Part shown: in pieces, positions 3,558 to 22,207 of the stretch | How the letters are laid out: every line of letters begins with the position of its first letter | How positions within the stretch are numbered: the stretch's first letter is position 1 | Origin: Hungatella sp. | GTDB lineage: Bacteria > Bacillota > Clostridia > Lachnospirales > Lachnospiraceae | Assembly (NCBI GenBank): GCA_022795805.1 | Contig: JAAWHK010000004.1 | Span: 1 to 64,000, forward strand | Length of the DNA stretch: 64,000 nucleotides | Reading direction: 5' to 3' | Notes under the pieces: generated by a model | Told to the model about the DNA's origin: nothing | Seen by the model: only the letters and a program-made list of their open reading frames with translations | Databases searched by the model: none | Program-made: the position numbers and the translations under genes

Positions 3558-3974
3558 ATGAAGATATCAAGGATTACAGAGCAGAATTTTAGGGGCATAA
3601 GGGAACTGAAATTGGAACTTGACGGAAAGAGTACCGTTATTTTCGGGGTCAACGGTGTGGGAAAGTCAAAGGCTTCCATTACAGGAGTATTTCGGTTTGA
3701 TTCCGGGGAGGAATTTGAATACTACCGCTCAATAAGCAGGCTGGATTTCAGTACTTTGTTTGAATGGTTTCGAATAAGGGAGGACCTGGAGAATCAGGAG
3801 AAGGTGCGCCAGGCTTTAGATCACGAAGACCGGGATTTAAAAGCTGTTCGGAAGGCTACGCTGGCCATCGCCAATCCGGTGCTGATAGATCCCCTGGAAG
3901 GCAGCGGGGGTGTTCTGATCGACGAGCTGGAACTCCACATGCATACCCAGTGGCAGAGAAACTGGCTGCCGTGA
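3558..3974 (+). pseudogene. decayed AAA/ABC-type ATPase of the PtuA/OLD-like kind
   Basis: An ATPase remnant of 138 residues where such proteins normally have 350-500. It begins with the typical FRGIRELKLELDGKS beta-strand and a Walker A GVNGVGKS, then jumps straight to a late strand (ITGVFRFDSGEEFEYYRSISR). It jumps again to FEWFRIREDLENQEKVR, and again to the Walker B region EGSGGVLIDELELHMHTQWQR, where the frame ends. Intact relatives have long segments at each of these joins, so at least three internal deletions are inferred. Full-length relatives occur in anti-phage systems such as Septu and retron-linked ATPases. The fragment keeps Walker motifs but lacks most of the fold and is very unlikely to work. 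Confidence 0.75.
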
Positions 3975-4040
3975 TCGATCAGATAACCCGGGGCAGAAAT
4001 AACAGTACCACAAAGGCCAGAGCGCAGAGGGGCAAAAGAG

Positions 4041-4307
4041 ATGATTGATCATCTGGGGCTTAACAGCTATTATCTGGTCCGGAACCGGGAGACTGCCATT
4101 GAAGAGAGCGGCTTCTATGATGAGGAAGCGTACACGGAGGATGAGATTCTGGATGTGATCAATTATTTCAATAAAAAATACATTGTAACAGATGACGAGA
4201 CGGATTTTGACATATTTATAGGAAGTACCAATAAAAAGGTAAAGCGACCGGAAAACTTTGGAAGTAATAGAATAAAAGACGATTTCAGGCTGATGTTATC
4301 ACCGTGA
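4041..4307 (+). CDS. small acidic hypothetical protein or gene remnant
   Basis: An open frame of 88 residues (MIDHLGLNSYY...), rich in Asp, Glu and Tyr, with no membrane segment. No family is recognised. No strong ribosome site precedes it, and it directly follows the broken ATPase in the same AT-rich patch. It may be the tail of a partner gene from the same lost system rather than an independent gene. Confidence 0.35.
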   Translation: MIDHLGLNSYYLVRNRETAIEESGFYDEEAYTEDEILDVINYFNKKYIVTDDETDFDIFIGSTNKKVKRPENFGSNRIKDDFRLMLSP

Positions 4308-4708: not shown

Positions 4709-6889
4709 ATGAATATATTACTGGTCGGCGGAAGCAGTAAGATCATGGACGCCATGATCGACAAATTGAATAAGGGCAGCCACCGGGTCTACCTTTTGAC
4801 AGGGCGCAGGGAAAAGAAATTCACCTACAAGCGTGCTTTTGAGAGGTATGATTTTTTGTATGACGACGACAATGTCATGAATATCGCAGAGAGCGTAAAG
4901 CCGGAAGCGGTGCTGTTTATGGGCGCTTACGACACGAACTTTGACTGGAGTAAAGGGAGGCAGGAGGCGGTGCGGTTCACCTCATCGCTGATCAATCTGC
5001 TGTCGGTCTGCTCCGCGGCAGGCAAAAACGGCTGCCGCTTTCTCTATCTTTCCTCCCAGGAGGTGTACAGCGGCTCCTACGGCGGCTGTGTTTTAGAGGA
5101 TGAGCCCGCTGCACCGAAAGACTACAGGGCTATGGCCCTGGCCCAGGGGGAGAGTATCTGTGAAAACTACCGGAAGATGCAGGGGATCAATGCCATTACG
5201 CTGAGGATGGACCGGGTTTACGGTATTCCAAGGGAAGGGCAGGAGGAGGATAACCCCTGTTTCAGAATGTGCCTGGAGGCGCTGAGAACCGGCTCCATAT
5301 CGGCTGACAGCAAAAACGTGTTCTCCATGATCTATCTCAGCGACGCCGTGGAACAGATCTGCCGCATGCTGATTGAGCGGGAGTCAAAGGCATCCTGCTA
5401 CCACATTTCTTCCATGGAGGAGATAAGCGAGATGGAGCTGGCACAGATGGTGAAAGACGGGCTGGATGCGGGTGTGACCATCACGGACAATACAATGGGG
5501 GATGTCAGACGCCTGATTCTGGACGGAAAGCGGTATCGGGAAGAGTACGGCCAGAAGACGTTTGTCCATTACGGGGAGGGCGTGAAAAAAGTCGTTCAGT
5601 TTATGGCAAAGCACAGAGATTCCTACATCAGCGCCGGGGACGCGGCGGGGGGATGGGGGGCGCGGCTCATGCACGGCGCCAGGGTCCTGCTTCGGAGGAT
5701 GGTGCCATACATGGAGAATATCGTGTGTTTCATCCTGTTCTTTATTGCGGATAACCGGACGGCGGGCAGCCGGTATTTTGAGCGGCTGGATTTCTATCTT
5801 CTGTATGTGCTTTTGTTTGCCACGGTCCACGGCCAGCAGCAGGCCATCTTCTCAGGTCTTCTGGCTGTGGCGGGATACATATTCGGCCAGATGTACGGAC
5901 AGTCGGGATTCGAGGTCCTGCTTGATTTCAATACATATGTGTGGATGGCGCAGCTGTTTATCGTGGGAATGGTGGTCGGCTATATGAGGGACCATTTGTA
6001 TCAGATCAGGGACGAGAAGGATGAGGAGCTGCGGTACCTCAGTGAGAAGCTGGAGGGCATTGCGGACATCAACGACAGCAATGTGCGGATGAAGCACAGC
6101 TTCGAGGCCCAGCTGGTGAATCAGAAGGACAGTCTGGGCAAGATTCACGAGATTACGTCCAGCCTGGATAAGTACGAACCGGAGGAGGTCCTGTTCTATG
6201 CCGCCCAGGTGCTGGGCAGGCTGATGGACAGTCGGGATGTGGCGGTGTACACGGTGGCCAACCGGGACTACGCCAGGCTGTTTTCCTCCACATCCGCCCA
6301 GGCCAGAAAGCTGGGAAGCTCCATCAAATACACGGATATGACAAAGCTGTACGGGGAACTGAGGGAGCACAGGGTGTTTATCAACAGGGAGATGGACGAA
6401 GACCTGCCTCTGATGGCCTGCGGCGTGTACGCGGCGGAGGAGATGCAGCTGATCCTGATGATATGGGGGATTCCGTGGCAGCGGATGACGCTGGCGGAGG
6501 CCAACAGGCTGACTATCGTGGGAACCCTGATTCAGAACGCCACCGTGCGTGCCAGCCGCTATCTGGAGAGCCTGAAGAGCCAGCGCTATGTGGAAGGCAC
6601 CAACGTGCTGACGGAGGCGGCTTTCGGCCAGCTGGTGAAGGCGTTCTTTGAGGCCAGGGACAAGGGGCTGACCGAATGCACCCTTCTGGAGATACAGGGA
6701 GGAAACGGCAGTTACAAAGCCGTGGGCGCCATGCTGGAGAAGAATATCCGTCAGACGGATTATATAGGCCTGCTGGAGGGAACGCTGTGCGTGCTTCTGT
6801 CCAACACCGGCAGAGACAACGCAAAGGGTGTGGTGGAGCGATTCCGCAGTTCAGGCTTTGAGAGCCTGCCGAAGGAGGAGATGGTATGA
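4709..6889 (+). CDS. pelD: SDR-PelD fusion: putative c-di-GMP receptor of a Pel-type polysaccharide synthase
   Basis: 726 residues in four parts. Residues 1-300 are an SDR/epimerase-like domain with SSQEVY and VYGIPRE. Residues about 325-435 contain about four membrane helices. A coiled coil and GAF-like domain follow to about 595, and a degenerate GGDEF domain fills about 600-726. The GGDEF motif itself is lost (LLEGTL replaces it), but RQTD at 681-684 sits where the inhibitory RxxD site lies. PelD of Pseudomonas binds c-di-GMP there and thereby activates Pel synthesis. The SDR part looks inactive: Tyr139 is kept but the +4 Lys is Ala143, and the glycine loop is GGSSKIM. The following genes are pelE-, pelF- and pelG-like, which supports the assignment. 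Confidence 0.85.
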   Translation: MNILLVGGSSKIMDAMIDKLNKGSHRVYLLTGRREKKFTYKRAFERYDFLYDDDNVMNIAESVKPEAVLFMGAYDTNFDWSKGRQEAVRFTSSLINLLSVCSAAGKNGCRFLYLSSQEVYSGSYGGCVLEDEPAAPKDYRAMALAQGESICENYRKMQGINAITLRMDRVYGIPREGQEEDNPCFRMCLEALRTGSISADSKNVFSMIYLSDAVEQICRMLIERESKASCYHISSMEEISEMELAQMVKDGLDAGVTITDNTMGDVRRLILDGKRYREEYGQKTFVHYGEGVKKVVQFMAKHRDSYISAGDAAGGWGARLMHGARVLLRRMVPYMENIVCFILFFIADNRTAGSRYFERLDFYLLYVLLFATVHGQQQAIFSGLLAVAGYIFGQMYGQSGFEVLLDFNTYVWMAQLFIVGMVVGYMRDHLYQIRDEKDEELRYLSEKLEGIADINDSNVRMKHSFEAQLVNQKDSLGKIHEITSSLDKYEPEEVLFYAAQVLGRLMDSRDVAVYTVANRDYARLFSSTSAQARKLGSSIKYTDMTKLYGELREHRVFINREMDEDLPLMACGVYAAEEMQLILMIWGIPWQRMTLAEANRLTIVGTLIQNATVRASRYLESLKSQRYVEGTNVLTEAAFGQLVKAFFEARDKGLTECTLLEIQGGNGSYKAVGAMLEKNIRQTDYIGLLEGTLCVLLSNTGRDNAKGVVERFRSSGFESLPKEEMV

Positions 6890-7845
6890 CACTGACGTAC
6901 GAGGAGGAGCTTTTCAGGAGCGTTCTGATCATCAACCTTGTGGCAGCGGTACTGTATCTTCTTATAGGAACCCTTGTGGTGGCTCCTGTGCGGGCGCGCA
7001 GGAGAGAGGGGGAGGAGGAGATACTCCGGGATAATCGGAGGGCCTACGTGCTCCGGTTTCTGGTGATGGTCCTGTGTCCTGTGGTTGGTCCCCTGTTTTT
7101 CTTCGTGTCCCATCTGCTGTACCTGACCGTGTTCCGGTTTCAGGTTGATTTGGATGATGTGGTCTTCGGCAAGGAGCGGGTGAGAACTCAGCAGAAAGCC
7201 GACGAGAACAGGGAGAGGAACGTGATCCCCGTGGAGGAGGCCATCGCGGTAAACGACAAGAAAAGTTTGCGCATGGCCATGATGAACATTATCAAGGGCG
7301 AGATGGAGGATTCACTGGCATCGATCGCCCTGGCGCTGGACGCGGAGGACTCCGAATCGGCCCACTATGCGGCCGCTGTCCTCAGCAGCAAGCTGAACGA
7401 ATTCCGCATGGATGTACAGAAATTATACGGATGTCTCAAGGAGGAGCCGGAGGATCAGACGGAGTGCGAGGAGCAGCTTCTCAATCAGATGAACAGCGTC
7501 TTGAGGCAGAACGTGTTCACGAAGATGGAACAGAACCGGTTTGTGAAGATGATGGACCAGGTGGCGGAGACATTTTACGCCAAGGACCCTTGGAAGATTA
7601 CCGACGAGCAGTATGAGAGCGTGTGTCTCAGGCTGATGGAGATAAACGATTTTGAAAATTCGGGCAAATGGTGCCAGAGGCTGAGGGAGCAGTACCCGGA
7701 CCGGCTGGCCGCTTATACCTGCAGGCTGAAGCTGTACTTTACCACCAGGGACCGGGAGGCCTTTTTCGGGGCGCTGGAGGAATTGAAGAGATCCGATGTG
7801 GTGATCAACAGCGAGACTCTGGATATGATACGAATTTTCAGCTGA
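6886..7845 (+). CDS. pelE: PelE-like membrane-anchored protein
   Basis: A 319-residue protein whose ATG overlaps the pelD stop (ATGA). Two hydrophobic helices, near residues 11-33 and 53-80, precede a long helical cytoplasmic region with TPR-like character. This matches PelE, which joins PelD and the other inner-membrane synthase parts. Sequence similarity to the Pseudomonas protein cannot be judged by eye; order and topology carry the call. The soluble part is rich in Glu, Met and Gln. Confidence 0.65.
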   Translation: MTLTYEEELFRSVLIINLVAAVLYLLIGTLVVAPVRARRREGEEEILRDNRRAYVLRFLVMVLCPVVGPLFFFVSHLLYLTVFRFQVDLDDVVFGKERVRTQQKADENRERNVIPVEEAIAVNDKKSLRMAMMNIIKGEMEDSLASIALALDAEDSESAHYAAAVLSSKLNEFRMDVQKLYGCLKEEPEDQTECEEQLLNQMNSVLRQNVFTKMEQNRFVKMMDQVAETFYAKDPWKITDEQYESVCLRLMEINDFENSGKWCQRLREQYPDRLAAYTCRLKLYFTTRDREAFFGALEELKRSDVVINSETLDMIRIFS

Positions 7846-7852
7846 GGAGAGA

Positions 7853-9682
7853 ATGCAGATGGTATCACGTAGAAATTATCTGGCGATCACGGCGGTGATG
7901 CTGGTGGTGTTTTTTCTTTTCCAGTTTACCAATGTGGCGCTGGAGAGCTGGAATGATTATAAGAATAATTCATATGCCGTGGACAGAGAGAGTCTTCCCC
8001 CTGAAAGCGGGGCGTACACGGCAGGGACAGAGGGGAAAGCGGATCTGGAGGGAATACCCGGCGGCAGGATAGCGGTCTTTATAGGAAGTGAAGAGGATCC
8101 TGTGGGCCGGGTGGTAAACACATGGGCCGTCTACGGAAAAAAGAAGATAAAGACGTACGGCACCGTGGAGGAATACCAAAAGAACAAAAAGAGGGACGGG
8201 ACGGACGATGCACGGATGGTCGTCATAGATCCCGACGCCCTGGACTGGGAGCGAAAGGAGACCGTGGAAGGCATTAACGGCCTGGTCAGGCCCGGAGTGA
8301 GCATCGTGTTCACCGGCCTTCCGGACGTGTCGGTTATTGAGGGAAACCGGAGGCTTATGGACATTCTGGGCATCCGCGGCGTCAGGGAGAAGGAGACCTT
8401 TGTGACAGGGCTTCATCTGTACCAGGGATTTCTGCTGGGTGGGGAGATGGTGTACAGGGCGGCCGATGAGGAGGAGTACAGCCGGCGACAGGACATGGAG
8501 TTTACATTCCCCTGGTTCACCCTCAAAGAGGGTACAAAGGCCTACATGAGAGGCATTGGCGAAAACGACGAGGAGAAGGAAGAGGACGGGCCGGCGGTGA
8601 TCTGGAGAAACCGGCTGGGAGGAGCCTCCGTGTTCGCGGTTAACGGGGGATACATGGAGGACGCGGCGGGAATCGGGATTCTGTCCGCCATGTGCGCCCA
8701 GTCCGGGGATCACTTGATCTATCCTGTGGTCAATGCCCAGAACATGATCTTTACCGGTTACCCGGGGCTGGCCAGGGAAAACAGCAAAGAGATGATGGAG
8801 CGCTACGGCCACACGCTGCCTGAGATGCTCAGAAACAACGCCTGGCCGGCCATCGTTGCGGTCAGCAACCGCAGCCCCATGGGCCTTTCGTCCATGCTGT
8901 CCCCCCAGTACGATTACGAGGACAGCAATTATCCGGATCAGGCGGAATTTCTGTATCATATGAAGCGGCTCAACGAGCAGAACGGGGAAGTGGGGCTGTC
9001 GGGCGTAAGCGTATCCCCAACCCCCGTAAAGAAGAAGCTTCTGGAGGATGCCCGGCTGATGGAGGACACGATCCCTGAGTACCGGTTTGCCTCCTTCTAC
9101 GGAGGCGGTCTGGGAGACGATGAGATAAGCAAGGCTCTGGAGAGCGGGTTCCTGGACAAGGTGCGGACCGTGGTTACGGATTATGACGGCGGCAGCCAGG
9201 TTATCGGATACCAGTCAGAGCACGTCACCAGGCAGCAGATCGTCTCCGACGGCACCCGGCACACGTTTATGGAGGACTTCAGGGTCAGAAGCCTGGAGAC
9301 TGCCCTCGCTTACACCAGCACCGCGGCGGATATAAGCCGGGCGGCCTTCCCGGAAGGGGAGGAGGACACCTTTGAGAAAGTGATCTCCGACTTTGGCTGG
9401 AATATCCAGCATTACTGGGAGCCGTTTAAGGACTTTGCCGGGACTACGGTGTCAGACTGCGACGAGCGCATCCGCCGCTTCCTGGCCCTCGACTACCGGG
9501 AGATTGAGGAGAACGGCGCCATCCGGCTGGAGCTGGAGTGGACGCCGACGCCGGTGTGGTTTATCCTGCGAAGCGACGGCAGGGATGTGGACCGGGTAGA
9601 GGGCGGAAGGGTGAAAAAACTGGAGGACGGAGCGTGGCTTTTGGAAGCAGATGAGCTGATGGTGACGATCCGGATGAAATAG
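7853..9682 (+). CDS. DUF2194 / PelA-like extracellular protein
   Basis: 609 residues. An N-terminal signal anchor (about residues 9-28) leads to an extracellular part with a Rossmann-like region (GGRIAVFIGS, VVIDPDALDW), a central domain around LSSMLSPQYDYEDSNYP, and a C-terminal beta-rich end. It resembles DUF2194 proteins, which take the place of PelA in Gram-positive Pel loci. No HxxxH metal motif of NodB-type deacetylases is visible and there is no glycosidase domain, so catalytic activity is uncertain. AGGAGAG lies just upstream of the ATG. It follows pelE by 7 bases. Confidence 0.65.
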   Translation: MQMVSRRNYLAITAVMLVVFFLFQFTNVALESWNDYKNNSYAVDRESLPPESGAYTAGTEGKADLEGIPGGRIAVFIGSEEDPVGRVVNTWAVYGKKKIKTYGTVEEYQKNKKRDGTDDARMVVIDPDALDWERKETVEGINGLVRPGVSIVFTGLPDVSVIEGNRRLMDILGIRGVREKETFVTGLHLYQGFLLGGEMVYRAADEEEYSRRQDMEFTFPWFTLKEGTKAYMRGIGENDEEKEEDGPAVIWRNRLGGASVFAVNGGYMEDAAGIGILSAMCAQSGDHLIYPVVNAQNMIFTGYPGLARENSKEMMERYGHTLPEMLRNNAWPAIVAVSNRSPMGLSSMLSPQYDYEDSNYPDQAEFLYHMKRLNEQNGEVGLSGVSVSPTPVKKKLLEDARLMEDTIPEYRFASFYGGGLGDDEISKALESGFLDKVRTVVTDYDGGSQVIGYQSEHVTRQQIVSDGTRHTFMEDFRVRSLETALAYTSTAADISRAAFPEGEEDTFEKVISDFGWNIQHYWEPFKDFAGTTVSDCDERIRRFLALDYREIEENGAIRLELEWTPTPVWFILRSDGRDVDRVEGGRVKKLEDGAWLLEADELMVTIRMK

Positions 9683-9717: not shown

Positions 9718-11190
9718 ATGAGAATATGTATAATAGCAGAAGGGTGCTATCCGTATGTGGTAGGCGGCGTGTCCAGCTGGACACACAGCCTGATAAAATC
9801 TTTTCCTGACCAGGAGTTTGTTATTCTGGCCATAGTGGCCGACCGCTCCCTGCGGGGAAAGTATGTGTACGATCTGCCGGACAATGTGACGGAGGTCCAT
9901 GAGCTGTACCTTAACGACGCGGACTGGGGCAGGAGAGGGCGGCGCAAAAAGCAGATGAGCCGAAAAGAGTACGAGGCGCTGCGCAGGCTGCTTCTGGGGC
10001 AGGAGACGGACTGGGACGTGCTGTTTGACTTCTTTCAGAAAAAGAAGATGTCCCTGGACGACATGCTCATGGGCGAGGATTTTCTGGACGCGGTGGCGGC
10101 GTACTATGATCTGGAATACAGCCAGCTGGTGTTCTCCGACTTTTTGTGGATGATGCGGTCCATCTATCTGACGCTGTTTACCACTTTAAAGATGAAAATT
10201 CCCAAGGCGGACGTGTACCACTGCGTGTGCACCGGCTATGCGGGAGTGCTGGGGAGCATGGCCAAGTATATCCACGGAGGAAAGCTTCTCATAACGGAAC
10301 ACGGGATCTACACCCGGGAGCGGGAGGAAGATCTCATCGTGGCAAAGTGGGTCCAGGGCGTGTATAAGACCATATGGATTGAACAGTTTCGGAAGATGTC
10401 CAATCTGGCCTACGAAAGGGCCGATCTGGTCACCAGCCTTTATAAGGAGGCCAGGGAGCTGCAAATAGAGGTGGGGTGTCCGCCTGAGAAGACGAGGGTC
10501 GTGCCCAACGGCATACGGGTGGAGGACTTTCAGAATATTCCCGGCAGGAGTCAGGAGGATGAGGGGAAGATCCATATCGGAGCCGTGCTTCGCGTGACCC
10601 CCATTAAGGATATTATGACCATGATACAGGCCTTCGGCTTTGCCAAGGAGAGAGAGCCGGCCTTAAAGCTGTGGATCATGGGTTCCTGGGAGGAGGATGA
10701 GGAGTATGCCAGGGGATGCTTTGAACTTGTTCGAACCATGGGCGTGAAGGATGTGGAGTTTACGGGGAAGATAAAGGCCGCGGATTACTACGGCAGAATG
10801 GATATGACCCTGCTCACCAGCATCAGCGAGGGGCAGCCCCTGACCATCCTGGAGAGCTTCGCAGCCAGAAAGCCGGTGATTGCCACGGATGTGGGCAACT
10901 GCCGGGGGCTGATCTGCGGCGAGGACGACGATCTGGGCCCGGCGGGCATCGTCACCCGGATCATGAATGTGCAGGAGATCGCCCAGGCCATGGTGCACCT
11001 GGCCCACAGCCAGCAGGAGCGGCAGCGGATGGGGGAAAACGGATACAGGCGCGTGGTTTCAGGCTATCAGTTCCGGTATATGCAGGATGCATACAGGGAA
11101 ATCTATAAAGAGTTTGCACAGAGCATGGGGATTGAGTGGACACAAAAGGATGCAGCGACGCAGGAAGGGGTGAGAGAATGGGAGGCGTAG
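9718..11190 (+). CDS. pelF: PelF family GT4 glycosyltransferase
   Basis: A 490-residue cytoplasmic GT-B glycosyltransferase that in Pel systems polymerises the sugar chain from UDP-sugars. PelF hallmarks are visible: GGVSSWTHSLI near the N-terminus, ITEHGIYTREREEDL in the middle, VVPNGI, then KDIMTMIQAF and the donor-site stretch SEGQPLTILESFAARKPVIA. It has no membrane segment and must dock on the membrane subunits. GGGAGA lies upstream of the start. The reading frame runs 13 bases into the next gene. Confidence 0.92.
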   Translation: MRICIIAEGCYPYVVGGVSSWTHSLIKSFPDQEFVILAIVADRSLRGKYVYDLPDNVTEVHELYLNDADWGRRGRRKKQMSRKEYEALRRLLLGQETDWDVLFDFFQKKKMSLDDMLMGEDFLDAVAAYYDLEYSQLVFSDFLWMMRSIYLTLFTTLKMKIPKADVYHCVCTGYAGVLGSMAKYIHGGKLLITEHGIYTREREEDLIVAKWVQGVYKTIWIEQFRKMSNLAYERADLVTSLYKEARELQIEVGCPPEKTRVVPNGIRVEDFQNIPGRSQEDEGKIHIGAVLRVTPIKDIMTMIQAFGFAKEREPALKLWIMGSWEEDEEYARGCFELVRTMGVKDVEFTGKIKAADYYGRMDMTLLTSISEGQPLTILESFAARKPVIATDVGNCRGLICGEDDDLGPAGIVTRIMNVQEIAQAMVHLAHSQQERQRMGENGYRRVVSGYQFRYMQDAYREIYKEFAQSMGIEWTQKDAATQEGVREWEA

Positions 11191-12629
11191 GCGTCAAGTT
11201 AAACCGGATATTTGGAAAGCGGTCCATCGCGGCGGATCTGGTGGGATTTACTTACAGTATCATCATCACCATTGCGCCCATACTGCTGGTGATTGGGACG
11301 ATTCTGCTGATGGGATTCGTGCTGGGATTCAGTGAGACGGATTATCTTACCAGGGAACTGTTCTCCTGTACCATACTGTATACGTTTATTTTTGCGCTTC
11401 TGACGGTGTCCCCTTTCAATGCGGTGCTGTCCAAGTACATGCAGGATGCCATCTATGAGGAGCGGTTTCAGGATATTCTGCCCTGTTACTACCTGGGGCT
11501 TGCCATGAATATGGCGTTTAGCTGCCTTTTGGGTATCCCGTTCTGTCTCTGGGAACATTTCGTGGGAGGCGTGGAGGTCTTTTACGTGTTCTGCGGGTTC
11601 TGCACCTATATATCCATGGTTCTGGTATTCTACTCCATGGTTTACCTCTCTATCTGCAAGGATTATGAGAGGCTTTTCGTGTTTTTCTTCATCGGAATGG
11701 CCATAGCGTTTATCCTGTGCCTGATTCTGGGGTTCTGGATGGGATGGGAGATTACGGAGAATATGCTGCTGTCTTTGACCGTGGGATTCTTTCTCATAGG
11801 AACCATGGAGTTTGCGGCCGTGAAGCGGTACTTTAAGGAGAACAGCAACCGGTATCTGCCGGTGCTTCGATACTTCAAAAAGTGGTGGAAACTGGTGGTG
11901 GTGAACTTCTTCTACATCTGCGGTCTCTATGTCCACAATTTTGTGTTCTGGACCCACGAGACCAGGACAATCATAGTCAGGAGCTTTGTGTACAATCAAC
12001 CCTACGACATGGCCTCCTGTCTCGCCATGTTTACCAACCTGTCGGCGACCATCATCTTTATCACCAATATCGAGATGCATTTTCACGAGAAATACAGAAG
12101 CTACTCGGAGGCTGTGATCGGAGGGAAAAGGGCGGATATCGTCAATGCCAAGAAGCGCATGTTCAGGCAGCTGGCCGGAGAGCTGATGAACCTGGCCAGG
12201 ATTCAGTTTATTATCTCCGTGGTGATCTATCTGCTGTGTGTGGTGTTTCTGCCCAGGTTCGGATTCGGAGGCTCCGTTCTCAGGATCTATCCCTGTCTGG
12301 CCGCAGGGTATTTCATCCTGTTTCTCATGTACGCATCGGTTCTGTTTATGTATTACTTCAACGACCTGACCGGCGCGGTTATATCCATCCTCTGCTTTTT
12401 CACGGCCACCCTTGCGGGAAGTATATTGGCAAAGAATCTAAGCGAGATCTGGTACGGCATCGGCCTGGTGGGAGGCTCCTTCATGGGCTGGAGCGTGGCC
12501 TACGCGCGGCTTCGATGGATCGAAAAGCACCTGGATACCCACGTGTTCTGCAGCGGTCAGCTTTTAAAACGGGGAATCGGACGCAAACCCTCCGGGCTGG
12601 TGTATCAAAAGAACAAGGCAGGAAAATGA
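11178..12629 (+). CDS. pelG: PelG family polysaccharide transporter
   Basis: 483 residues, almost entirely membrane helices (about 12), starting with LVGFTYSIIITIAPILL, typical of PelG. PelG is a MOP-superfamily-like protein thought to move the Pel chain across the membrane together with PelD, PelE and PelF. The ATG at 11178 has AGGAAGGGG upstream and overlaps pelF. An earlier in-frame ATG at 11136 lies deeper inside pelF and lacks a ribosome site. The stop overlaps the next gene (ATGA). Confidence 0.9.
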   Translation: MGGVGVKLNRIFGKRSIAADLVGFTYSIIITIAPILLVIGTILLMGFVLGFSETDYLTRELFSCTILYTFIFALLTVSPFNAVLSKYMQDAIYEERFQDILPCYYLGLAMNMAFSCLLGIPFCLWEHFVGGVEVFYVFCGFCTYISMVLVFYSMVYLSICKDYERLFVFFFIGMAIAFILCLILGFWMGWEITENMLLSLTVGFFLIGTMEFAAVKRYFKENSNRYLPVLRYFKKWWKLVVVNFFYICGLYVHNFVFWTHETRTIIVRSFVYNQPYDMASCLAMFTNLSATIIFITNIEMHFHEKYRSYSEAVIGGKRADIVNAKKRMFRQLAGELMNLARIQFIISVVIYLLCVVFLPRFGFGGSVLRIYPCLAAGYFILFLMYASVLFMYYFNDLTGAVISILCFFTATLAGSILAKNLSEIWYGIGLVGGSFMGWSVAYARLRWIEKHLDTHVFCSGQLLKRGIGRKPSGLVYQKNKAGK

Positions 12630-13828
12630 AAAAGCTCCTGTTTGTCATCAATACCATGGGGCAGGCCGGAGCGGAGACTGCCCTTCTGGAGGTGCTTAAA
12701 AAGCTGGAGGGATGCGGTCATGAAGTGTTTCTCTATGTGCTTATGGGCCAGGGGGAGATGATGGGGCAGCTGCCGTCAGAGGTCAGGCTTCTGAACCGGA
12801 ATTTCAGCACCATGTCCGTTTTGTCAGGGGCAGGCCGGAGGAGAATGGCCCGTACGGTGTGCCGGGCATTTTTCCGAAACGGAGGCTGCTGGAGGAAACT
12901 GTGCTGCCTGGCAAAGGTTTTCGCCTCTATGGCGAGAGGGGGAAGGATACGGATAAGCAAGCTTTTGTGGCGCATTGTTTCCGACGGGACCGTGCGTTTT
13001 GACACGACGTTCGACGGGGCCGTGGCCTGGCTGGAGGGAGGTTCCGCATACTACGTGGCGGAACATGTGAAGGCCGTTAAAAAGACGGCGTTCATCCACA
13101 TTGACTATGAGAACGCGGGGTATACAAGGGAGATGGACAGAGACTGCTGGAGAGAGTTTGACCAGATCTTTGCCGTATCCGGGGAGGTGAGGGAGCATTT
13201 CCTGGAGTTTTATCCCGCCTATAGATACAAAACAGGCATTCTGTACAATATGCTGGACGAGGAGAGGATCCGGAAAAGGGCCGGGGAGCCGGGAGGTTTC
13301 ACGGACGCCTATGACGGAATGCGGCTGGTGAGCGTAGGCCGGCTGTCCTGGCAGAAGGGCTACGACATTGCGGTGGAGGCCATGAAGCTTCTGAAAGATT
13401 CCGGGTACAGACTCAGGTGGTATGTCCTGGGGGAAGGGGATCAGAGGGGGCGTCTGGAGAAGAAGATACGGGCTCTGGGGCTTAAGGAGGATTTCATACT
13501 TCTGGGGGCGTTGGAAAACCCCTACCCCTACTATGTCCAGGGGGATATCTATGTACATACGGCCAGATTTGAGGGGCGGAGCATCGCCGTTCAGGAGGCC
13601 CGGATACTGGGATGCGCCATCGTGGCCACCGACTGCAGCGGCAACCGTGAGGAGATCACCCACGGAAAGGACGGAATCCTGTGCGGGCTGAGTGCCCGGG
13701 CGGTGGCGGACGCGGTGGCGGCCCTCATTGACGACGATGAGAGGCGAATGGCGCTGGGAAGAGAGGCAGGGAAAACGCGGCTGCCTGAGGGAAAAAGAAC
13801 GGAGGAACTGACGGATATTTTCCTTTGA
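12626..13828 (+). CDS. GT4 family glycosyltransferase
   Basis: A 400-residue GT-B enzyme. The N-terminal domain starts FVINTMGQAGAETALLEVL. The C-terminal half has the GT4 pattern VSVGRLSWQKGYDIAVEA, YVLGEGDQRGRLE and a donor site FEGRSIAVQEARILG. The ATG overlaps the pelG stop, although the frame is open much further upstream in an unused phase. It probably adds a sugar to a lipid-linked or side-chain intermediate; donor and acceptor cannot be read. Confidence 0.88.
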   Translation: MKKLLFVINTMGQAGAETALLEVLKKLEGCGHEVFLYVLMGQGEMMGQLPSEVRLLNRNFSTMSVLSGAGRRRMARTVCRAFFRNGGCWRKLCCLAKVFASMARGGRIRISKLLWRIVSDGTVRFDTTFDGAVAWLEGGSAYYVAEHVKAVKKTAFIHIDYENAGYTREMDRDCWREFDQIFAVSGEVREHFLEFYPAYRYKTGILYNMLDEERIRKRAGEPGGFTDAYDGMRLVSVGRLSWQKGYDIAVEAMKLLKDSGYRLRWYVLGEGDQRGRLEKKIRALGLKEDFILLGALENPYPYYVQGDIYVHTARFEGRSIAVQEARILGCAIVATDCSGNREEITHGKDGILCGLSARAVADAVAALIDDDERRMALGREAGKTRLPEGKRTEELTDIFL

Positions 13829-13856
13829 TATACGAAGAATGGCGGGAGGCGGGATT

Positions 13857-16157
13857 ATGGAGATGCTGTACTGGGCGGCTGAGTATGGGAAGGTGCTGGG
13901 GGGCTATGTGTTTCTGATGTTTGTCTGGCCCATGGTGGTCTTTGGCAGGCATCTGAAGAGGAAGACCGGCATGTATCGGTTCGGTTTCTGTGTGACGGCG
14001 CAGATCGTCCTGGTGAACACGGCCGTTCTGATACCGGGACTTTTTCATATTCTGAACCGGAAGCTGATCGTGTTTTTGTTTTACGGCGCTTTTGTGTGGG
14101 GGCTCTGCATGGAGGGGGAATGGTTTCGCTCCCTGGCCCGGAGCATTCGCAGAATAGAGTCTGTTTTTCGTTTTAACGGTTTTCGCCCGGGACGGTGGAT
14201 CAGGGGGCTTGTGTGGGATCTGTGGTGGCGGCATGGGAACGGGCTCTTGGTGTACCCGGCTTTCGGGGCGGTGGTTATGCTGGGCATGGCCTACTTTTCC
14301 TACGGGGCGTTTCAGGTTGGCTCCTACGGGGGCGGAGATCTGTACACCCATCACGCGTGGATATACGGGCTTATGGAGGGCCGGATCTTTGCCGACGGCA
14401 TCTACCCGGAGGCCATGCACTGCTTTGTCTACTGTCTCAACGCCCTGTTTGGCATCCGGGTGGACAGTATCCTTTTATTTTTGCAGAATATTCATATAAC
14501 CGTGTTTTTTGTCTCCGCTTACTTTCTGATGCGTCAGGTGTTTGCATGGCGCTACACGCCGATCTTCGTTCTGGCGCTGTTTGTGACCTTGGATGTGGTC
14601 AGTGCGGACGAGATCTACGGGATGTACCGCCTCCAGATGACCCTTCCCCTGGAGTTCGGGCTTCACACCCAGTTTCTGTGCGCCCTGTATCTTTTGCGCT
14701 ATCTGAAGGGGGAGGGAGGAGAAACGGTCAGGGGCAGACGGGTGAGGTACCGGCGCAGTGAGGATCTGTTTCTGCTGGCGTCTTCCGTGGCCGCCTCTGT
14801 GGCCGTCCACTACTATACGACCATTATGGCCGTGGTGATGTGCGCTTCCTTTGCCGCTTTTTCCCTGAAGCGGCTGTTTTCAAAGAGATATCTGGCGCCT
14901 GTTATGACGGCGGCAGTCTGCGGCTTTGCCGTGGCGGCGATGCCTATGGCCGGGGCTTTTGCGTCGGGGATACCCTTTAATTACTCCATCACATGGGCGC
15001 TGAACGCCATGGACGGCAGCGAGACCAGGGAGCTGGACGAAAAGCTGGAGGAGGAGAAGGCCGGGGAAGAGGGGAGTTCGGGGAATGAGGCCGCCGGGGA
15101 AGACGGGGGCTATCCCATAGAGAAAAGTGAGGCGGGAAACTGGCAGGAGAAAGTGACTGCGGTGTATGAAAAGGGATATAAGGCTCTCTACGGGCAACGG
15201 ACAGGCCTGGTGCTTCTTCTGACTGCGGTATCCGTGATGCTCTGCCTGTCGGGACGAAGGAATCCGGACCGGCTGCCGGGTACGGTCTGCAGAGGTTACC
15301 CTCCGGCCATCCTCCTGTCATTCTTCTACATCCTTCTGTACGCGGCGCCTTTTATGGGGCTGCCGGAGGTGATCTCCGACTCCCGTTTCTGTTCCACGGG
15401 CCATATGATGATCCTGGCAGTGATGATGATACCAATAGACGCCCTAATAGCGGCGGCTGTATCCGTGTGGGGGGAGAGATTTTTGTTCCACCTGCTGTCG
15501 TTTCTGGCGCCGGCTGGCATATACGCGGCCGTGATCCTGACAGGCAATTACCACGGGTATCTGTTCTATGAGATGACGCGGTGCAGGCAGGCGGTGGCAG
15601 TGACCAACCGGATCATAGAGGAATTTCCGGCGGGAAGCTTTGTGGTGGTCGCCCCCACGGACGAACTGTACCCGGTCAGCCCTTACGGATGGCATGAGGA
15701 GCTTCTCAGTTTTGTGAGAAACAGCGAAAACGGGGAGTATTTTCTTCCGACACAGCATATTTTTATTTATGTGGAGAAGAAACCGTTCCGCTACTCTCAG
15801 GCCCACTTTTTCACCGGGCCTTCCTGGCTGGCAGAGGAAAAATATCAGGATATCTACTGGGACAAGTACTCGAAAAAGTATCCGGAAAAGGGCAGCAGCC
15901 AGGCTCCGGAAGTCGACGCGTCTCAGATCTCCGTGGAGGCGGCCCAGACGGCCATGGAGGAGCTGGATAAGGGATGGCGGGCCTACACCCGTCTGGACAG
16001 GCGCACGGCACTGGAATCGAAAGCCTACGGCTGGTGCAGGAGATTTGCGGAAAGGTATCCCATGGCTCTGAAGGTGTATTATGAGGATGAGGACTTTGTG
16101 TGCTACTATTTGGAACAGGAGCCAGGGGAGGAACCGTATAACCTGGGCATGGAATAG
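13857..16157 (+). CDS. large multi-spanning membrane protein, GT-C-like
   Basis: 766 residues with about 12 membrane helices and a soluble C-terminal part. The ATG at 13857 is preceded by GGAGGCGG; an ATG 18 bases earlier has no ribosome site. An early outer loop reads GGGDLYTHHAW, followed by YPEAMH; an acidic residue in the first outer loop followed by YP..H is typical of GT-C lipid-sugar-dependent transferases. A charged, Glu/Gly-rich loop (about residues 385-430) interrupts the helices. Function is inferred from topology and location: a transferase or polymerase acting outside the membrane. Confidence 0.55.
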   Translation: MEMLYWAAEYGKVLGGYVFLMFVWPMVVFGRHLKRKTGMYRFGFCVTAQIVLVNTAVLIPGLFHILNRKLIVFLFYGAFVWGLCMEGEWFRSLARSIRRIESVFRFNGFRPGRWIRGLVWDLWWRHGNGLLVYPAFGAVVMLGMAYFSYGAFQVGSYGGGDLYTHHAWIYGLMEGRIFADGIYPEAMHCFVYCLNALFGIRVDSILLFLQNIHITVFFVSAYFLMRQVFAWRYTPIFVLALFVTLDVVSADEIYGMYRLQMTLPLEFGLHTQFLCALYLLRYLKGEGGETVRGRRVRYRRSEDLFLLASSVAASVAVHYYTTIMAVVMCASFAAFSLKRLFSKRYLAPVMTAAVCGFAVAAMPMAGAFASGIPFNYSITWALNAMDGSETRELDEKLEEEKAGEEGSSGNEAAGEDGGYPIEKSEAGNWQEKVTAVYEKGYKALYGQRTGLVLLLTAVSVMLCLSGRRNPDRLPGTVCRGYPPAILLSFFYILLYAAPFMGLPEVISDSRFCSTGHMMILAVMMIPIDALIAAAVSVWGERFLFHLLSFLAPAGIYAAVILTGNYHGYLFYEMTRCRQAVAVTNRIIEEFPAGSFVVVAPTDELYPVSPYGWHEELLSFVRNSENGEYFLPTQHIFIYVEKKPFRYSQAHFFTGPSWLAEEKYQDIYWDKYSKKYPEKGSSQAPEVDASQISVEAAQTAMEELDKGWRAYTRLDRRTALESKAYGWCRRFAERYPMALKVYYEDEDFVCYYLEQEPGEEPYNLGME

Positions 16158-16158
16158 G

Positions 16159-17694
16159 ATGGTAAAGACAGGAAAAACAGGAGGCGGTGCAGCCGTGATG
16201 CTTGCTTGTGTGCTGATGCTTGCGGGGGGCGGCCGGTATGCACAAAAGAAGGACTTTCTGTCCGTGGAGGGTCTAAGAAGCACGGCAGAAAAAGCCGCGG
16301 CCCCCAAAGGGTTGGAGGGGACCGTCGAAACCGTTGTCTTTGCGGAGTCAAACCGCAGGCTGGAGAATCCAAACCGGGGGTTCTATCAGCTTTACGAATT
16401 CCTCATCACGGATGAAGGGATGGATTACCGGGAGTTTATCGAAGAGTGGTACCCAAAGATTACGGATATCAGCCTGATGTTCATTCAGGTGAATCTGCAG
16501 TCCTATGTAAACGGTGAGATCACGGAGGAGGGGCTGAAACAGATCGGAGAACTTTTTGACGTGCTGGCCACCTACAAAAAACAGCTGATCGTCCGGTTCG
16601 TGTACGACCGGGAGGGAAAGATCGAGGAGCACGAGCCGGAGAGCCTGGATGTGATCGTGAGGCATATGGAGCAGCTGGAGAGCATTCTGGAGGAGCATGC
16701 AGGCCAGATCTTCATTGTCCAGGGAGTATTTACGGGCAACTGGGGGGAGATGAACGGGAGCCGGTACGACACAAAGGAGGACTGGAGAGTGCTGGCGGAA
16801 AAACTGGCCCGGGTGACGGATGATTCCATCTACCTGGGGGTCCGCACTCCGGCCCAGTGGCGTACGCTTATCCCCATGGAACAGACTGCGGCGGGAGTTC
16901 TGTCCTGCATCGGGGACGGTTTTGGAAGAAAGTCCAATGCGTCCCTCACGCCTCTCTGGGGGCGTCTGGGACTGTTCAACGACGGAATGCTGGGAAGCGA
17001 AAGCGACTACGGAACATACGGTGAGGAGAGCGCCGCAAAGGCCGGCTGGACGGAGCCCTGGATGCGGGAGGAGGAACTGGCCTTTCAGAACTGCCTGTGC
17101 AGGCTGGTGCCAAACGGCGGGGAGGTTATTGTGGACAATCCATGTAACGACCTGGCCAACGCGGTGAGGGACATGGAGCTTATGCATGTGACCTATCTCA
17201 ACAAGTGGCATGACCCGGCGGTTCTGGAAAAATGGAGAGAGACCGCCGTGGAGGAGGAGGGCTGCTTTGACGGACTGGACGGATACACGTATATGGAGCG
17301 GCGTCTGGGATACCGGTTCTTCATTGAATCCGTTCAATTAAAGTACAGGCGAAAGGGTTCCTGCCTGTCGGTGGCCATCAGAATAAAGAATGCGGGGTTT
17401 GCCCCCATATACAGGGAGCCGGAGATGAGACTGGTGCTTCGCGGTGAGGGCGGCGGAACAAAAGTCGTGTCTGTTCCCCTGGAGGGCAGTCTGCAAAGCC
17501 TCGCCGGGGGAACGGAATCGGACAGGGCGGTGACGCTTAGAAAGGACATTGTGCTGGAGGATTTTTCCGCAGGAACATACCGGATATACTTCGATATGAC
17601 GGACTCCGGTACCCGGACCCGCATCCGATTGGGCAATGAACAGAATGAGGAGAAGTACGGCTACTGCCTGGGAACGGTTGAACTGCGGCAGTGA
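16159..17694 (+). CDS. exported DUF4874/DUF4832 protein
   Basis: 511 residues with a signal-peptide-like N-terminus (VMLACVLMLAGGG). The mature part begins with ESNRRLENPNRGFY, the hallmark of DUF4874, followed by a TIM-barrel-like region and the DUF4832 section (LGVRTPAQWR, LGLFNDGMLG). The C-terminal 100 residues are beta-rich. These proteins recur in exopolysaccharide loci and are presumed to bind or cut glycans, but no activity is established. The start at 16159 directly follows the previous stop; its ribosome site is weak. Confidence 0.75.
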   Translation: MVKTGKTGGGAAVMLACVLMLAGGGRYAQKKDFLSVEGLRSTAEKAAAPKGLEGTVETVVFAESNRRLENPNRGFYQLYEFLITDEGMDYREFIEEWYPKITDISLMFIQVNLQSYVNGEITEEGLKQIGELFDVLATYKKQLIVRFVYDREGKIEEHEPESLDVIVRHMEQLESILEEHAGQIFIVQGVFTGNWGEMNGSRYDTKEDWRVLAEKLARVTDDSIYLGVRTPAQWRTLIPMEQTAAGVLSCIGDGFGRKSNASLTPLWGRLGLFNDGMLGSESDYGTYGEESAAKAGWTEPWMREEELAFQNCLCRLVPNGGEVIVDNPCNDLANAVRDMELMHVTYLNKWHDPAVLEKWRETAVEEEGCFDGLDGYTYMERRLGYRFFIESVQLKYRRKGSCLSVAIRIKNAGFAPIYREPEMRLVLRGEGGGTKVVSVPLEGSLQSLAGGTESDRAVTLRKDIVLEDFSAGTYRIYFDMTDSGTRTRIRLGNEQNEEKYGYCLGTVELRQ

Positions 17695-17700: not shown

Positions 17701-18819
17701 ATGACGGATATGGACCGGGGAGAGTGGGGAAGGTTGGACGAGAGGAAAGAAAGCATTGTTTTTTTCATAGGAGACATGAGCCATTCCGGAGGTACGGAGA
17801 GGGTTCTGTCGGTCATAGCCAACGGGCTGTCGGACAGGGGGTATCCCGTGACCGTGGTCAGTCTTTGGGGGGACGGCAGGACGTTTTTCCCGATGGGAAG
17901 ACAGGTGAAGGTCAGGTGGATAAAGAGAGAGTGCCCGAAGGCAGGCATACCGGGACGGCTTAAGTTTCTCTGTTCCGTCTTGAGGAAGGCGGACGCCCGC
18001 ATTCTGGTGGACGTGGATATGATCCTGGGGTGCTACTCCCTGTTTATGAAATGGCGGATACCCGGATTGTACTGGATCTCGTGGGAGCATTTTTACTATG
18101 ATTTCCCCTTTGAAAGGTACAGGCTTGTGCGAAAGGCGGTGAGGAGGCTGGCGGGAAGATACGCGGACCGTCTGGTGGTCCTGACCCGGGCGGACCGGCA
18201 GGTTTACGCTGGGAGGATGGCCTTAAAAAACAGGATCGTCTGCATCCACGACCCGGCTCCCTTTGATACAGGGTATGAAAAAGAGGAGGAGACTCCCATG
18301 ATCTTTGGAGCCGGGCGGCTCACAAAGGTGAAGGGGTTCGACATGCTGCTGAAAAGCTGGAAGCTGCTGGAGGAGAAATATCCCCGGTGGACCATGGTGA
18401 TCGCGGGATGCGGGGAGGAGAGGGAGGCTCTGGAAAAGCAGGCCGGGGACCTGGGGCTAAAACGGCTGACATTTGCGGGCAATGTGCCGGATATTGAGGC
18501 GTATTACCAAAAAGCAGCGTTTTTTGTTCTTCCCTCCAGGAACGAGGGGTTCGGCATGGCGCTGCTGGAGGCCATGTGCTTTGGCCTTCCGGCGGTGTGT
18601 TACGCCTGCAGGATGGGGCCAAAGGAGATCGTGGAGGATCAGAAAACCGGATTTTTGGTGGAACCGGGGGATATATCCGCCTTTGCCGGGAAGATGGAAG
18701 TTCTTATGAGGGATATGGAGCTGCGCAGGCAGATGGGGCAGGCGGCTGCCAGGTCAGCCGGGCGGTTTGAGAGGGAGAAGATTCTGGATAAGTGGGAATC
18801 TTTGATAAGTGGGAGATGA
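17701..18819 (+). CDS. GT4 family glycosyltransferase
   Basis: A 372-residue GT-B transferase. It starts with VFFIGDMSHSGGTERVLSVIA, the acceptor-side glycine loop. It then has FGAGRLTKVKGFDMLLKSW and the donor-site motif RNEGFGMALLEAMCFGLP. This pattern is close to enzymes that transfer hexoses or N-acetylhexosamines onto lipid-linked glycans, but specificity is not readable. It lies 6 bases after the DUF4832 gene, and its stop overlaps the next start (ATGA). Confidence 0.88.
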   Translation: MTDMDRGEWGRLDERKESIVFFIGDMSHSGGTERVLSVIANGLSDRGYPVTVVSLWGDGRTFFPMGRQVKVRWIKRECPKAGIPGRLKFLCSVLRKADARILVDVDMILGCYSLFMKWRIPGLYWISWEHFYYDFPFERYRLVRKAVRRLAGRYADRLVVLTRADRQVYAGRMALKNRIVCIHDPAPFDTGYEKEEETPMIFGAGRLTKVKGFDMLLKSWKLLEEKYPRWTMVIAGCGEEREALEKQAGDLGLKRLTFAGNVPDIEAYYQKAAFFVLPSRNEGFGMALLEAMCFGLPAVCYACRMGPKEIVEDQKTGFLVEPGDISAFAGKMEVLMRDMELRRQMGQAAARSAGRFEREKILDKWESLISGR

Positions 18820-19844
18820 ATAAGAGGGAGATGAAAGTGTCGGTGATTATCCCTGTGTACAACAGACAGGCCTTTATCAGGCAGTGTGTGGGTTCGGTGG
18901 TTGAGCAGACGTGGAGAGATCTGGAGATCATCCTTGTGGACGACGGTTCCGGGGACGAAAGCCTGGCCATATGCAGGCAGATGGAGGCTGAGGACGACCG
19001 GATCCGGGTGGTGTCCCAGGACAGCCGGGGCGTGTCGTCCGCGCGGAACCGCGGGCTTTCCATGGCCCGGGGGGAGTACGTGTTTTTTCTGGACAGCGAC
19101 GATACGGTCTGCCCCCTGCTTTTGGAAACATTTGTCCGGCAGGCGGGGGAATGGGGGGCAGGGGTGCTGTTTTGCTCCTACACCAGGAGAGATCCGAAGG
19201 AGGACGGCGCCGGATGGGAGGACATCCAAAACGGCAGAACGATCCGGGAGCCATGGATCGAGAGTACCAAAAAGGAGAGCGAAGAGTGGTTTCACAAGAA
19301 GCATCACAGGGAACTGTCCGGTATCGGCGGGAAGATGATAGACCGCAGGCTTATAGGAGACTTGCAGTTTGACCGGGAGATTTCCGGCGGGGAGGATACG
19401 GTTTTTATGTACAATCTGATCCGCCGGGGCGTGAGGCTGGCCTGCCTTGACCGGCAGTGGTATTACTACCGGGAGCACGAGGGGAGCCTGTCCCATCTGA
19501 ACCGGATCGAAAAGAGCAGGCAGAGTTTTAAGGCTTATGAGTTTATAAGAGATGAGGAGTACCGAAGGGGCAGCCGGTGGGCCGGAGAGTGGGAGTACCG
19601 GTTTGTCTGGGACATCCTGACCAGATATCTGCTCATGTGTGAGCAGAAGGACAGGGACGGGAGCAGGGATTTGAGAGAGAGGATGCTAAAGGAGATGAGG
19701 CATCCATTATATAGAGCGTTTTCAGCCGGGAGAAAGGCGGTTTTCGGGGGATTGTTTTTTGGCTGTTCCCATATCCCTCCGGTGAGATGGCTGTGGATGA
19801 GAAAGAGGCGGGAGCCGGATCGTAAGATTTGCGGAAAAGCGTGA
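18816..19844 (+). CDS. GT2 family glycosyltransferase
   Basis: A 342-residue GT-A enzyme: SVIIPVYNRQAFIRQC, VDDGSGDES, SARNRGLSMARGEYVFFLDSDD (the DxD metal site) and GEDTVFMYNL. It transfers a sugar from a nucleotide donor in the cytoplasm. The ATG at 18816 overlaps the previous stop. A GTG at 18792 and an ATG at 18831 in the same frame are alternatives, and none has a well-spaced ribosome site. The C-terminal region has a membrane-binding hydrophobic patch (AVFGGLFFG). Confidence 0.88.
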   Translation: MNKREMKVSVIIPVYNRQAFIRQCVGSVVEQTWRDLEIILVDDGSGDESLAICRQMEAEDDRIRVVSQDSRGVSSARNRGLSMARGEYVFFLDSDDTVCPLLLETFVRQAGEWGAGVLFCSYTRRDPKEDGAGWEDIQNGRTIREPWIESTKKESEEWFHKKHHRELSGIGGKMIDRRLIGDLQFDREISGGEDTVFMYNLIRRGVRLACLDRQWYYYREHEGSLSHLNRIEKSRQSFKAYEFIRDEEYRRGSRWAGEWEYRFVWDILTRYLLMCEQKDRDGSRDLRERMLKEMRHPLYRAFSAGRKAVFGGLFFGCSHIPPVRWLWMRKRREPDRKICGKA

Positions 19845-19877
19845 GGGCGAACATAGCGGTGAGAGGGGAGGAAGATT

Positions 19878-21125: not shown

Positions 21126-22207
21126 TATCGATAATCGTTCCGGTTTATAACTCAGAATCCTATATCGGCGGATGCATAGAGTCGGTTCTGAATCAGACAT
21201 ACCCGTATTTTGAGGTGATTCTGGCGGATGACGGCTCAAAGGACAAAAGCAGGGACTTGTGCGAATCGTTTTGCCGGAAGGATGAGCGGGTGCGGCTTCT
21301 GAATCTGGAACACAGAGGCGTTTCTGCGGCGCGGAACAGGGCCATGGAGGCGGCCCGGGGGGAGTACCTGTTTTTTCTGGACAGCGACGATGTCATCCAC
21401 CCTCAGCTTTTGGAGGCGCTTTTGGGACTGTTGAGGCGGGATCATGCCGCCATAGCCACGGAGACCCGCTTCTATGCGGGGGGCGGAGCGTTTCGAAAGC
21501 CCACGGAGTGGAGGCAGGAGGAGGACTGCACAGGCGAAAGCATGTATCTGGATTGCGATGCGGCCATTGATTACCGGAATTTCGGCAGTCCGGAGACCAC
21601 GCTGTACGTCATAGGGGGAAAGCTGATCAGCCGAAATGCGCTGGGGCAGGTGCGTTTCAACGAAAAGCTGACCCACGGGGAGGACACGCTGTTTCTTTAT
21701 GAGCTGATCGCCGCAGGCGGGGATGTGTCGGTGTTAAAGAGGGACTGGTACTATTACCGGATCCACGAAGGAGGGATTACCAGTGTATTTTCGGTGCCCA
21801 CATGCAAAAGCCGGCATAGGGTCAACCGGTATATCCGCAACCGGGAGATAAAAAGCGGGAGGCGGGAGAATGCCCTGCGCTGGGAGGGCGTAATCCTGAA
21901 CGCTCTGATGAAATGGTATGAGATCGGGCGCAGAGAGAGGGACACAGGGTTAGCGGCCTACGCAAAAAGGCTGGGGAATGCGGAGGTGAGATCCGGGCTG
22001 TTTTCCGATATGGCGGTAAAAAAGAGAGTCAATTTCTATATAACCATGTACGGCTTTCGGCTCCATCAGATAATCTCAGCAGGCTACAGGGCAGCTCCCT
22101 TTGCACGACGCATATGGTCTAAAGTGTGGACGGCCGTGCCGTTTATCTATCAGGCAGCGTTTATCTGTCAGGTGTTTTTGTCAGGAAAGAAGAGGAGCGG
22201 GGAGTAG
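21113..22207 (+). CDS. GT2 family glycosyltransferase (paralogue of upstream gene)
   Basis: 364 residues; the ATG is preceded by AAGGAGGCGG. It shows SIIVPVYNSESYIGGC, ADDGSKDKS, FFLDSDDVIHP and THGEDTLFLYEL. It shares the upstream enzyme's layout through the WYYYR.HEG and RENA(V/L)RWE stretches, so the two arose by tandem duplication, but it lacks the long Trp/Lys tail. The acidic residue in the second nucleotide-sugar motif reads ADDGS instead of VDDGS. It probably adds a related sugar in the same repeat unit. Confidence 0.88.
   Translation: MEELISIIVPVYNSESYIGGCIESVLNQTYPYFEVILADDGSKDKSRDLCESFCRKDERVRLLNLEHRGVSAARNRAMEAARGEYLFFLDSDDVIHPQLLEALLGLLRRDHAAIATETRFYAGGGAFRKPTEWRQEEDCTGESMYLDCDAAIDYRNFGSPETTLYVIGGKLISRNALGQVRFNEKLTHGEDTLFLYELIAAGGDVSVLKRDWYYYRIHEGGITSVFSVPTCKSRHRVNRYIRNREIKSGRRENALRWEGVILNALMKWYEIGRRERDTGLAAYAKRLGNAEVRSGLFSDMAVKKRVNFYITMYGFRLHQIISAGYRAAPFARRIWSKVWTAVPFIYQAAFICQVFLSGKKRSGE

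What the first reader, a model, noticed from the sequence alone, without database searches (positions are those of the whole stretch)
4709..5610. SDR domain fused to PelD appears catalytically dead
The N-terminal epimerase-like domain keeps Tyr139 but has Ala143 where SDR enzymes need Lys, and its nucleotide loop is GGSSKIM rather than GGxGxxG. A pseudo-enzyme fused to a signalling receptor suggests a second sensing input, for example for a nucleotide sugar, rather than precursor synthesis.
Basis: partly seen in the sequence, partly recalled or inferred. Interest (0 to 1): 0.55.

Follow-up and report, generated by a model that had tools for sequence, protein, structure and literature searches.

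The report
Dead epimerase domain on PelD receptor
A gut bacterium's biofilm-control protein (PelD) carries at its front a sugar-enzyme-shaped domain that has lost the residues needed for catalysis; the type is already described, but here the pattern of loss is mapped across about 80 relatives, with the damaged cleft apparently kept for some other use.

Summary
ORF 4709-6889 is a PelD in a pelDEADAFG operon: extended-SDR domain (1-~301), membrane segment, GAF, degenerate GGDEF with an intact c-di-GMP RxxD site (R681/D684). Aligned with GalE and RmlB, catalytic Tyr149 falls on Arg140 and Lys153 on Leu144; Tyr139 aligns with a proline and is unconserved. Both are lost, as are G10/G13 of the loop, D31, D58, R231 and R292.

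Degenerate SDR-PelD in clostridia was published in 2020 and later classified, function 'unknown'. Added here: loss in about 75 of about 81 fusions, against 36-37 of 37 standalone SDRs intact; one fully and one catalytically intact fusion, plus five partly decayed ones; at least two independent losses. In the window's subfamily the old NAD cleft is more conserved than the rest of the domain, with new residues (D75, Y51, K/R140, H169), while UDP-sugar contacts are mostly lost. An intact GalE lies elsewhere in the genome. So: pseudo-enzyme supported; specific UDP-sugar sensing not supported; a regulatory/assembly module with a re-specified cleft is likeliest, unproven.

The parts
4709..6889 (+). 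pelD: SDR - membrane segment - GAF - degenerate GGDEF fusion, 726 aa
   Evidence: ORF; Pfam; AGGAGG about 9 nt upstream of ATG; Foldseek of the C-terminal part hits P. aeruginosa PelD 4etz, E=4.6e-6
4709..5611 (+). degenerate extended-SDR (epimerase-like) domain, residues 1-~301
   Evidence: Pfam Epimerase 3-226; AF2 Rossmann core pLDDT 80-87; Foldseek RmlB 6bi4 / GalE 3aw9 E=1.7e-9
4727..4747 (+). degenerate glycine loop GGSSKIM (residues 7-13); canonical GGxGxxG
   Evidence: alignment; G10 and G13 of the motif not conserved in fusions
4799..4801 (+). Thr31 at the NAD-ribose Asp31 position (Thr in 92% of close relatives); the following 4-residue loop is deleted
4859..4861 (+). Tyr51, invariant in 36/36 close relatives, at GalE Ile59 beside the lost Asp58
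4922..4948 (+). GAYDTNFDW, residues 72-80; Asp75 invariant at the GalE Lys84 position
5051..5056 (+). Ser115-Ser116; Ser116 = GalE Ser124, the only catalytic-triad residue retained
5126..5128 (+). Arg140 at the catalytic Tyr149 position (Lys/Arg in 34/36 close relatives)
5138..5140 (+). Leu144 at the catalytic Lys153 position (Leu, Ile, Val or Phe in all close relatives)
5210..5215 (+). Asp168-Arg169 at GalE Phe178-Asn179 (Asp-His in most relatives)
5321..5323 (+). Phe205 at the GalE Arg231 position (UDP phosphate-binding Arg lost)
5684..5986 (+). membrane segment, about residues 326-426
   Evidence: hydropathy peaks at 326-349, 379-397 and 403-423; the number of helices was not resolved
5996..6886 (+). 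coiled-coil, GAF and degenerate GGDEF
   Evidence: AF2 and Foldseek to PelD 4etz; profile hits to GGDEF structures
6749..6760 (+). RQTD (681-684), c-di-GMP inhibitory-site RxxD; R and D invariant in 36 aligned fusions
   Evidence: known role in PMC8461298
6886..7845 (+). pelE
   Evidence: position; 54-75% identical at the same place in nine related loci
7853..9682 (+). pelADA (DUF2194)
   Evidence: Pfam; synteny
9718..11190 (+). pelF glycosyltransferase
   Evidence: NCBIfam PelF equivalog 354.8 bits, cut-off 100
11136..12629 (+). pelG exporter (exact start uncertain)
   Evidence: Pfam PelG E=3.9e-140
12626..13828 (+). GT4-type glycosyltransferase next to pelG (start approximate)
   Evidence: Pfam; homologue next to pelG in four of nine related loci
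16081..17694 (+). DUF4832/DUF4874 accessory gene
   Evidence: Pfam; the DUF4832 accessory type named for clostridial pel loci in PMC7112168

Best explanation
This is a PelD receptor of the published degenerate-SDR type that keeps its GGDEF c-di-GMP site. Its N-terminal SDR is a pseudo-enzyme (shown by sequence). It most likely sits in the cytosol as part of the PelDEFG synthase complex and serves as a regulatory/assembly module: its reshaped former NAD cleft binds a ligand or a partner segment, and this state, together with c-di-GMP on the RxxD site, biases activation of the PelF polymerase (inferred). It does not make UDP-GalNAc; a separate GalE can.
For: PelD identity: pelEADAFG downstream and Foldseek to PelD 4etz. 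Catalysis lost: Tyr149->R140, Lys153->L144, loop and D31/D58 lost. Lost across the family with standalone SDRs intact as control. Domain kept: fused SDR in essentially all full-length relatives, and dN/dS 0.085 in the one usable pair. Cleft: positions matching GalE NAD contacts are more conserved than the domain (0.646 vs 0.533, P about 0.0005; non-canonical positions only P=0.002; published contact list P=0.012), with fixed new residues. c-di-GMP site invariant and 6 GGDEF matches in the genome. Intact GalE with Cys299 elsewhere.
Against: No ligand or partner is shown. Cleft residues sit at strand ends and are buried, and the random control was not matched for burial; in the sister clade the enrichment fails with the published contact list (P=0.34). 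One streptococcal strain without the SDR region still makes pel-dependent biofilm (PMC7112168). dN/dS rests on one pair. The AF2 model of the domain is only moderate (pLDDT 64).
Confidence: 0.45

Rival explanations
1. Ligand-free scaffold: the SDR fold is kept for dimerisation through its helix bundle, or to pair with a true GalE or with PelF/PelE, bringing UDP-GalNAc supply to the polymerase.
For: Extended SDRs dimerise through a four-helix bundle (GalE, PMC6668579); helices 80-103 and 139-158 are the well-predicted part of the model and carry conserved residues (W80, R84, Q85, E86, R89, E148, C151). An intact GalE exists in the genome.
Against: The strongest family-specific invariants (T31, Y51, D75, K/R140) lie at cofactor-cleft positions rather than only on helix faces. 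No complex was modelled.
Confidence: 0.34
2. Nucleotide-sugar sensor using the ancestral substrate site.
For: The fold derives from sugar-nucleotide enzymes; Ser116 is kept; the Pel precursor UDP-GalNAc would be a sensible signal.
Against: UDP-binding R231, R292 and Y299 are replaced and N179 is switched; UDP-sugar contacts show no excess conservation (P about 0.22).
Confidence: 0.1
3. Relic: the domain is a non-functional leftover of an old fusion.
For: The catalytic residues are lost; one streptococcal strain lacks the domain and still forms pel-dependent biofilm (PMC7112168).
Against: Open, full-length and fused in dozens of genera after divergence to about 20% identity; dN/dS 0.085; about 30 residues newly fixed in the close clade.
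Confidence: 0.07
4. An active enzyme with a non-standard mechanism.
For: Ser116 is retained and a basic residue replaces the Tyr; a Y149F UDP-GlcA epimerase keeps about a thousandth of its activity (PMC7984243).
Against: Tyr, Lys, Gly-loop, D31 loop and D58 are all gone together, so canonical NAD binding is not expected.
Confidence: 0.03

Closest known systems
Degenerate-SDR PelD of clostridia, streptococci and actinobacteria (Whitfield 2020, PMC7112168; four-class scheme cited in PMC12345266)
   Same: N-terminal SDR with altered cofactor and catalytic residues, membrane segment, GAF, GGDEF with RxxD; pelDEADAFG operon; DUF4832 accessory gene.
   Different: The streptococcal class lacks GGDEF; this one keeps it. 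No cotH, polyphosphate polymerase or DUF4956 gene was seen among the Pfam-scanned genes in the 17 kb after pelG.
SDR-PelD of Brevibacillus (Whitfield 2020)
   Same: Same fusion architecture.
   Different: There the SDR was judged probably functional; in the window it is not. A fully intact fusion (L085) and one with intact triad and loop (L122) were found here, the latter in the window's own order.
UDP-glucose 4-epimerase GalE / dTDP-glucose 4,6-dehydratase RmlB (extended SDRs)
   Same: Fold, Ser124, R176, D238 and general layout.
   Different: Tyr149, Lys153, Gly-loop, D31, D58, R231 and R292 are lost.
NmrA-like SDR pseudo-enzymes used as dinucleotide sensors (recalled from general knowledge, a lead only)
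   Same: A Rossmann/SDR fold without catalytic residues in a regulatory role.
   Different: NmrA keeps dinucleotide binding; here the Gly-loop and adenosine loop are lost. No homology test was made.

Membership tests
Gram-positive PelD | encoded first in pelDEADAFG | tested here: met
Gram-positive PelD | membrane helices, GAF and degenerate GGDEF | tested here: met
   Foldseek to PelD 4etz E=4.6e-6; hydropathy peaks; number of helices not resolved
Gram-positive PelD | RxxD inhibitory site for c-di-GMP | tested here: met
   R681, D684 invariant in 36 fusions
Gram-positive PelD | binds c-di-GMP | not testable with these tools
   needs a binding assay
Degenerate-SDR PelD with GGDEF | N-terminal SDR with altered cofactor and catalytic residues | tested here: met
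Active extended SDR / GalE | YxxxK catalytic pair | tested here: not met
   R140 and L144
Active extended SDR / GalE | GGxGxxG loop and Asp31 for NAD | tested here: not met
   GGSSKIM, T31, 4-residue deletion
Active extended SDR / GalE | UDP-binding R231 and R292 | tested here: not met
   F205 and T262
Active extended SDR / GalE | extended SDR fold | tested here: met

The most novel reading that the evidence does not exclude
Repeated loss of catalysis in PelD-fused SDRs was followed by re-use of the former NAD cleft (fixed D75, Y51, T31, K/R140, H169) as the binding site of a new, unknown ligand, making PelD a two-input receptor (c-di-GMP plus that ligand) for Pel production in gut Lachnospiraceae.
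Probability: 0.3. Interest if true: 0.6.

Novelty: new member of a known kind. Interest (0 to 1): 0.3.

Why it matters
The role of the degenerate SDR in PelD is stated as unknown in the 2025 literature. The map of retained, lost and newly fixed positions names the residues to mutate, and the intact and half-decayed fusions (L085, L122, L124/L125, L126, L089) give natural stages of a pseudo-enzyme's origin. If the cleft binds a ligand, Pel output in many gut Firmicutes would have a second input besides c-di-GMP.

Tried and rejected
Tyr139 as the catalytic Tyr: rejected by register and by lack of conservation. Alternative catalytic Lys: none found; the basic residue at 140 sits where the Tyr should be. 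Natural fission of SDR and PelD in a congener (L147): the break lies at a run of seven G and the downstream frame shows no start codon in its first 40 codons, so an indel or sequencing error is likelier. Recognising PelD by profile against PDB sequences: only generic GGDEF hits; the fold search was needed. dN/dS over many pairs: saturated, one usable pair. AU test of a single loss: p=0.057, not rejected on the tree, but the complementary half-losses (Y kept/K lost in L126; K kept/Y lost in L124/L125) still require at least two losses.

Full report
What is there. ORF 4709-6889 (+, 726 aa) begins a pel operon: pelD, pelE 6886-7845, pelADA/DUF2194 7853-9682, pelF 9718-11190 (NCBIfam PelF 354.8 bits against a cut-off of 100), pelG 11136-12629 (Pfam E=3.9e-140), then a GT4-type glycosyltransferase, a 772-aa protein without Pfam match and a DUF4832/DUF4874 gene. 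pelDEADAFG order is kept in nine related Lachnospiraceae loci. The N-terminal 301 residues are an extended SDR (Pfam Epimerase E=8.7e-16; Foldseek RmlB/GalE E=1.7e-9, from a moderate AF2 model with a good Rossmann core). The C-terminal part matches P. aeruginosa PelD 4etz (E=4.6e-6) and keeps the c-di-GMP RxxD site, invariant in 36 fusions.

The observation. The loop GGSSKIM is as stated, but the catalytic residues were misread by one. Alignment with E. coli GalE and with intact SDR-PelD fusions is ungapped from the YxxxK motif to the following conserved Glu: Tyr149 = Arg140, Lys153 = Leu144, Pro148 = Tyr139. phmmer against RmlB structures gives the same register. Tyr139 is Tyr in 5 of 36 close relatives; position 140 is Lys/Arg in 34 of 36; position 144 is Leu, Ile, Val or Phe in all 36. 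GalE D31, D58, G10, G13, R231 and R292 are also lost, and four residues of the adenosine-binding loop are deleted. Ser116 (= Ser124) is kept. The conclusion 'catalytically dead' therefore stands, on firmer ground.

Is the loss conserved? Searches of 299 family, 399 phylum and 245 order genomes gave about 81 SDR-PelD sequences. About 75 lack both catalytic residues. L085 is fully intact apart from D58; L122 keeps loop and catalytic triad but not D58, R231 or R292. L124/L125 keep loop and Lys but lost Tyr, L126 keeps loop and Tyr but lost Lys, L089 keeps the loop with Lys lost, and L127 keeps YxxxK but lost the loop. All seven of these genomes have a PelG, 3-6 kb downstream of pelD. As control, 37 of 37 standalone SDRs in the same alignment keep Lys153 and 36 of 37 keep Tyr149. 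The half-decayed forms are complementary, so loss occurred at least twice whatever the tree. A tree of the PelD part puts intact and partial forms near the base of the fused group with moderate support; a single clade of all non-intact fusions is not formally rejected (p=0.057).

What is kept. In the window's subfamily (36 sequences), positions aligned with GalE NAD contacts are more conserved than the domain average (0.646 vs 0.533, P=0.0006 and 0.0004 in two runs), also when only positions that differ from the canonical residue are counted (P=0.002) and with the contact list of a published GalE structure (PMC6668579; P=0.012). UDP-sugar contacts are not (P about 0.23). Newly fixed residues include T31, Y51, G72, D75, K/R140, D168 and H169 (Arg in the window). 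In the sister clade the effect is weaker and absent with the published list. The control is not matched for burial, so this is a lead, not proof. One usable pair gives dN/dS 0.085 for the SDR and 0.048 for GAF-GGDEF.

How it may work. P. aeruginosa PelD binds c-di-GMP at RxxD and belongs to the PelDEFG complex (PMC8461298). The window's genome has six GGDEF matches, so c-di-GMP is probably available. Its GalE (L071, 58% identical to E. coli GalE, the checked active-site residues kept, Cys at 299) can plausibly supply UDP-GalNAc; that Cys299 permits N-acetylated sugars is established GalE knowledge, and PMC6668579 names this site among those that set specificity. I infer a regulatory or assembly role for the pseudo-SDR, with a re-specified cleft; a pure scaffold is nearly as likely; a UDP-sugar sensor using the old site is unlikely.

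What is known. Whitfield et al. [quoted passage not shown] The 2021 review that defines the classes is not held. The finding is thus a new member of a known kind. The corrected residues, the intact and partial fusions, and the cleft conservation are the additions here; I did not find them in the papers I could read, and the supplementary figure with residue-level detail was not available to me.

Noticed in passing
window 13839-16157: 772-aa protein without any Pfam or NCBIfam match, with several hydrophobic stretches, after pelG; homologues (43-52% over the matched part) lie near pel in three of nine related loci.
   Followed up: partly
window 17701-31956: A long run of glycosyltransferases, pyruvyl transferase, FrhB-like, DUF1919, ABC-2 transporter, deacetylase and MatE genes follows the pel operon directly, like the Roseburia pel loci embedded in a larger capsule-type cluster described in PMC7112168.
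   Followed up: partly
window 3558-4307: Remnant of an AAA_15 ATPase gene (Pfam match covers only the first 38 of 374 positions), apparently broken, between a TetR regulator gene and pelD.
   Followed up: no
genus of the window: pel is patchy: 3 of 25 sampled congeners have a PelD, all only 25-30% identical, while the closest relatives (72-73%) are in an assembly labelled Enterocloster bolteae and in another genus; suggests lateral exchange.
   Followed up: partly
L147, reverse strand, about 1430-1490: SDR and PelD in separate frames, with a GGGGGGG run in the linker; could be a sequencing error or a slippage site.
   Followed up: partly
G103 and G233 (L012/L041, L024/L057): Two different SDR-PelD genes in one genome, one of the close and one of a divergent type.
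   Followed up: no
GalE Asp58 position in L085, L122, L124, L126: Even the catalytically intact or loop-intact SDR-PelD fusions lack the adenine-contacting Asp58, suggesting that it was lost early.
   Followed up: partly
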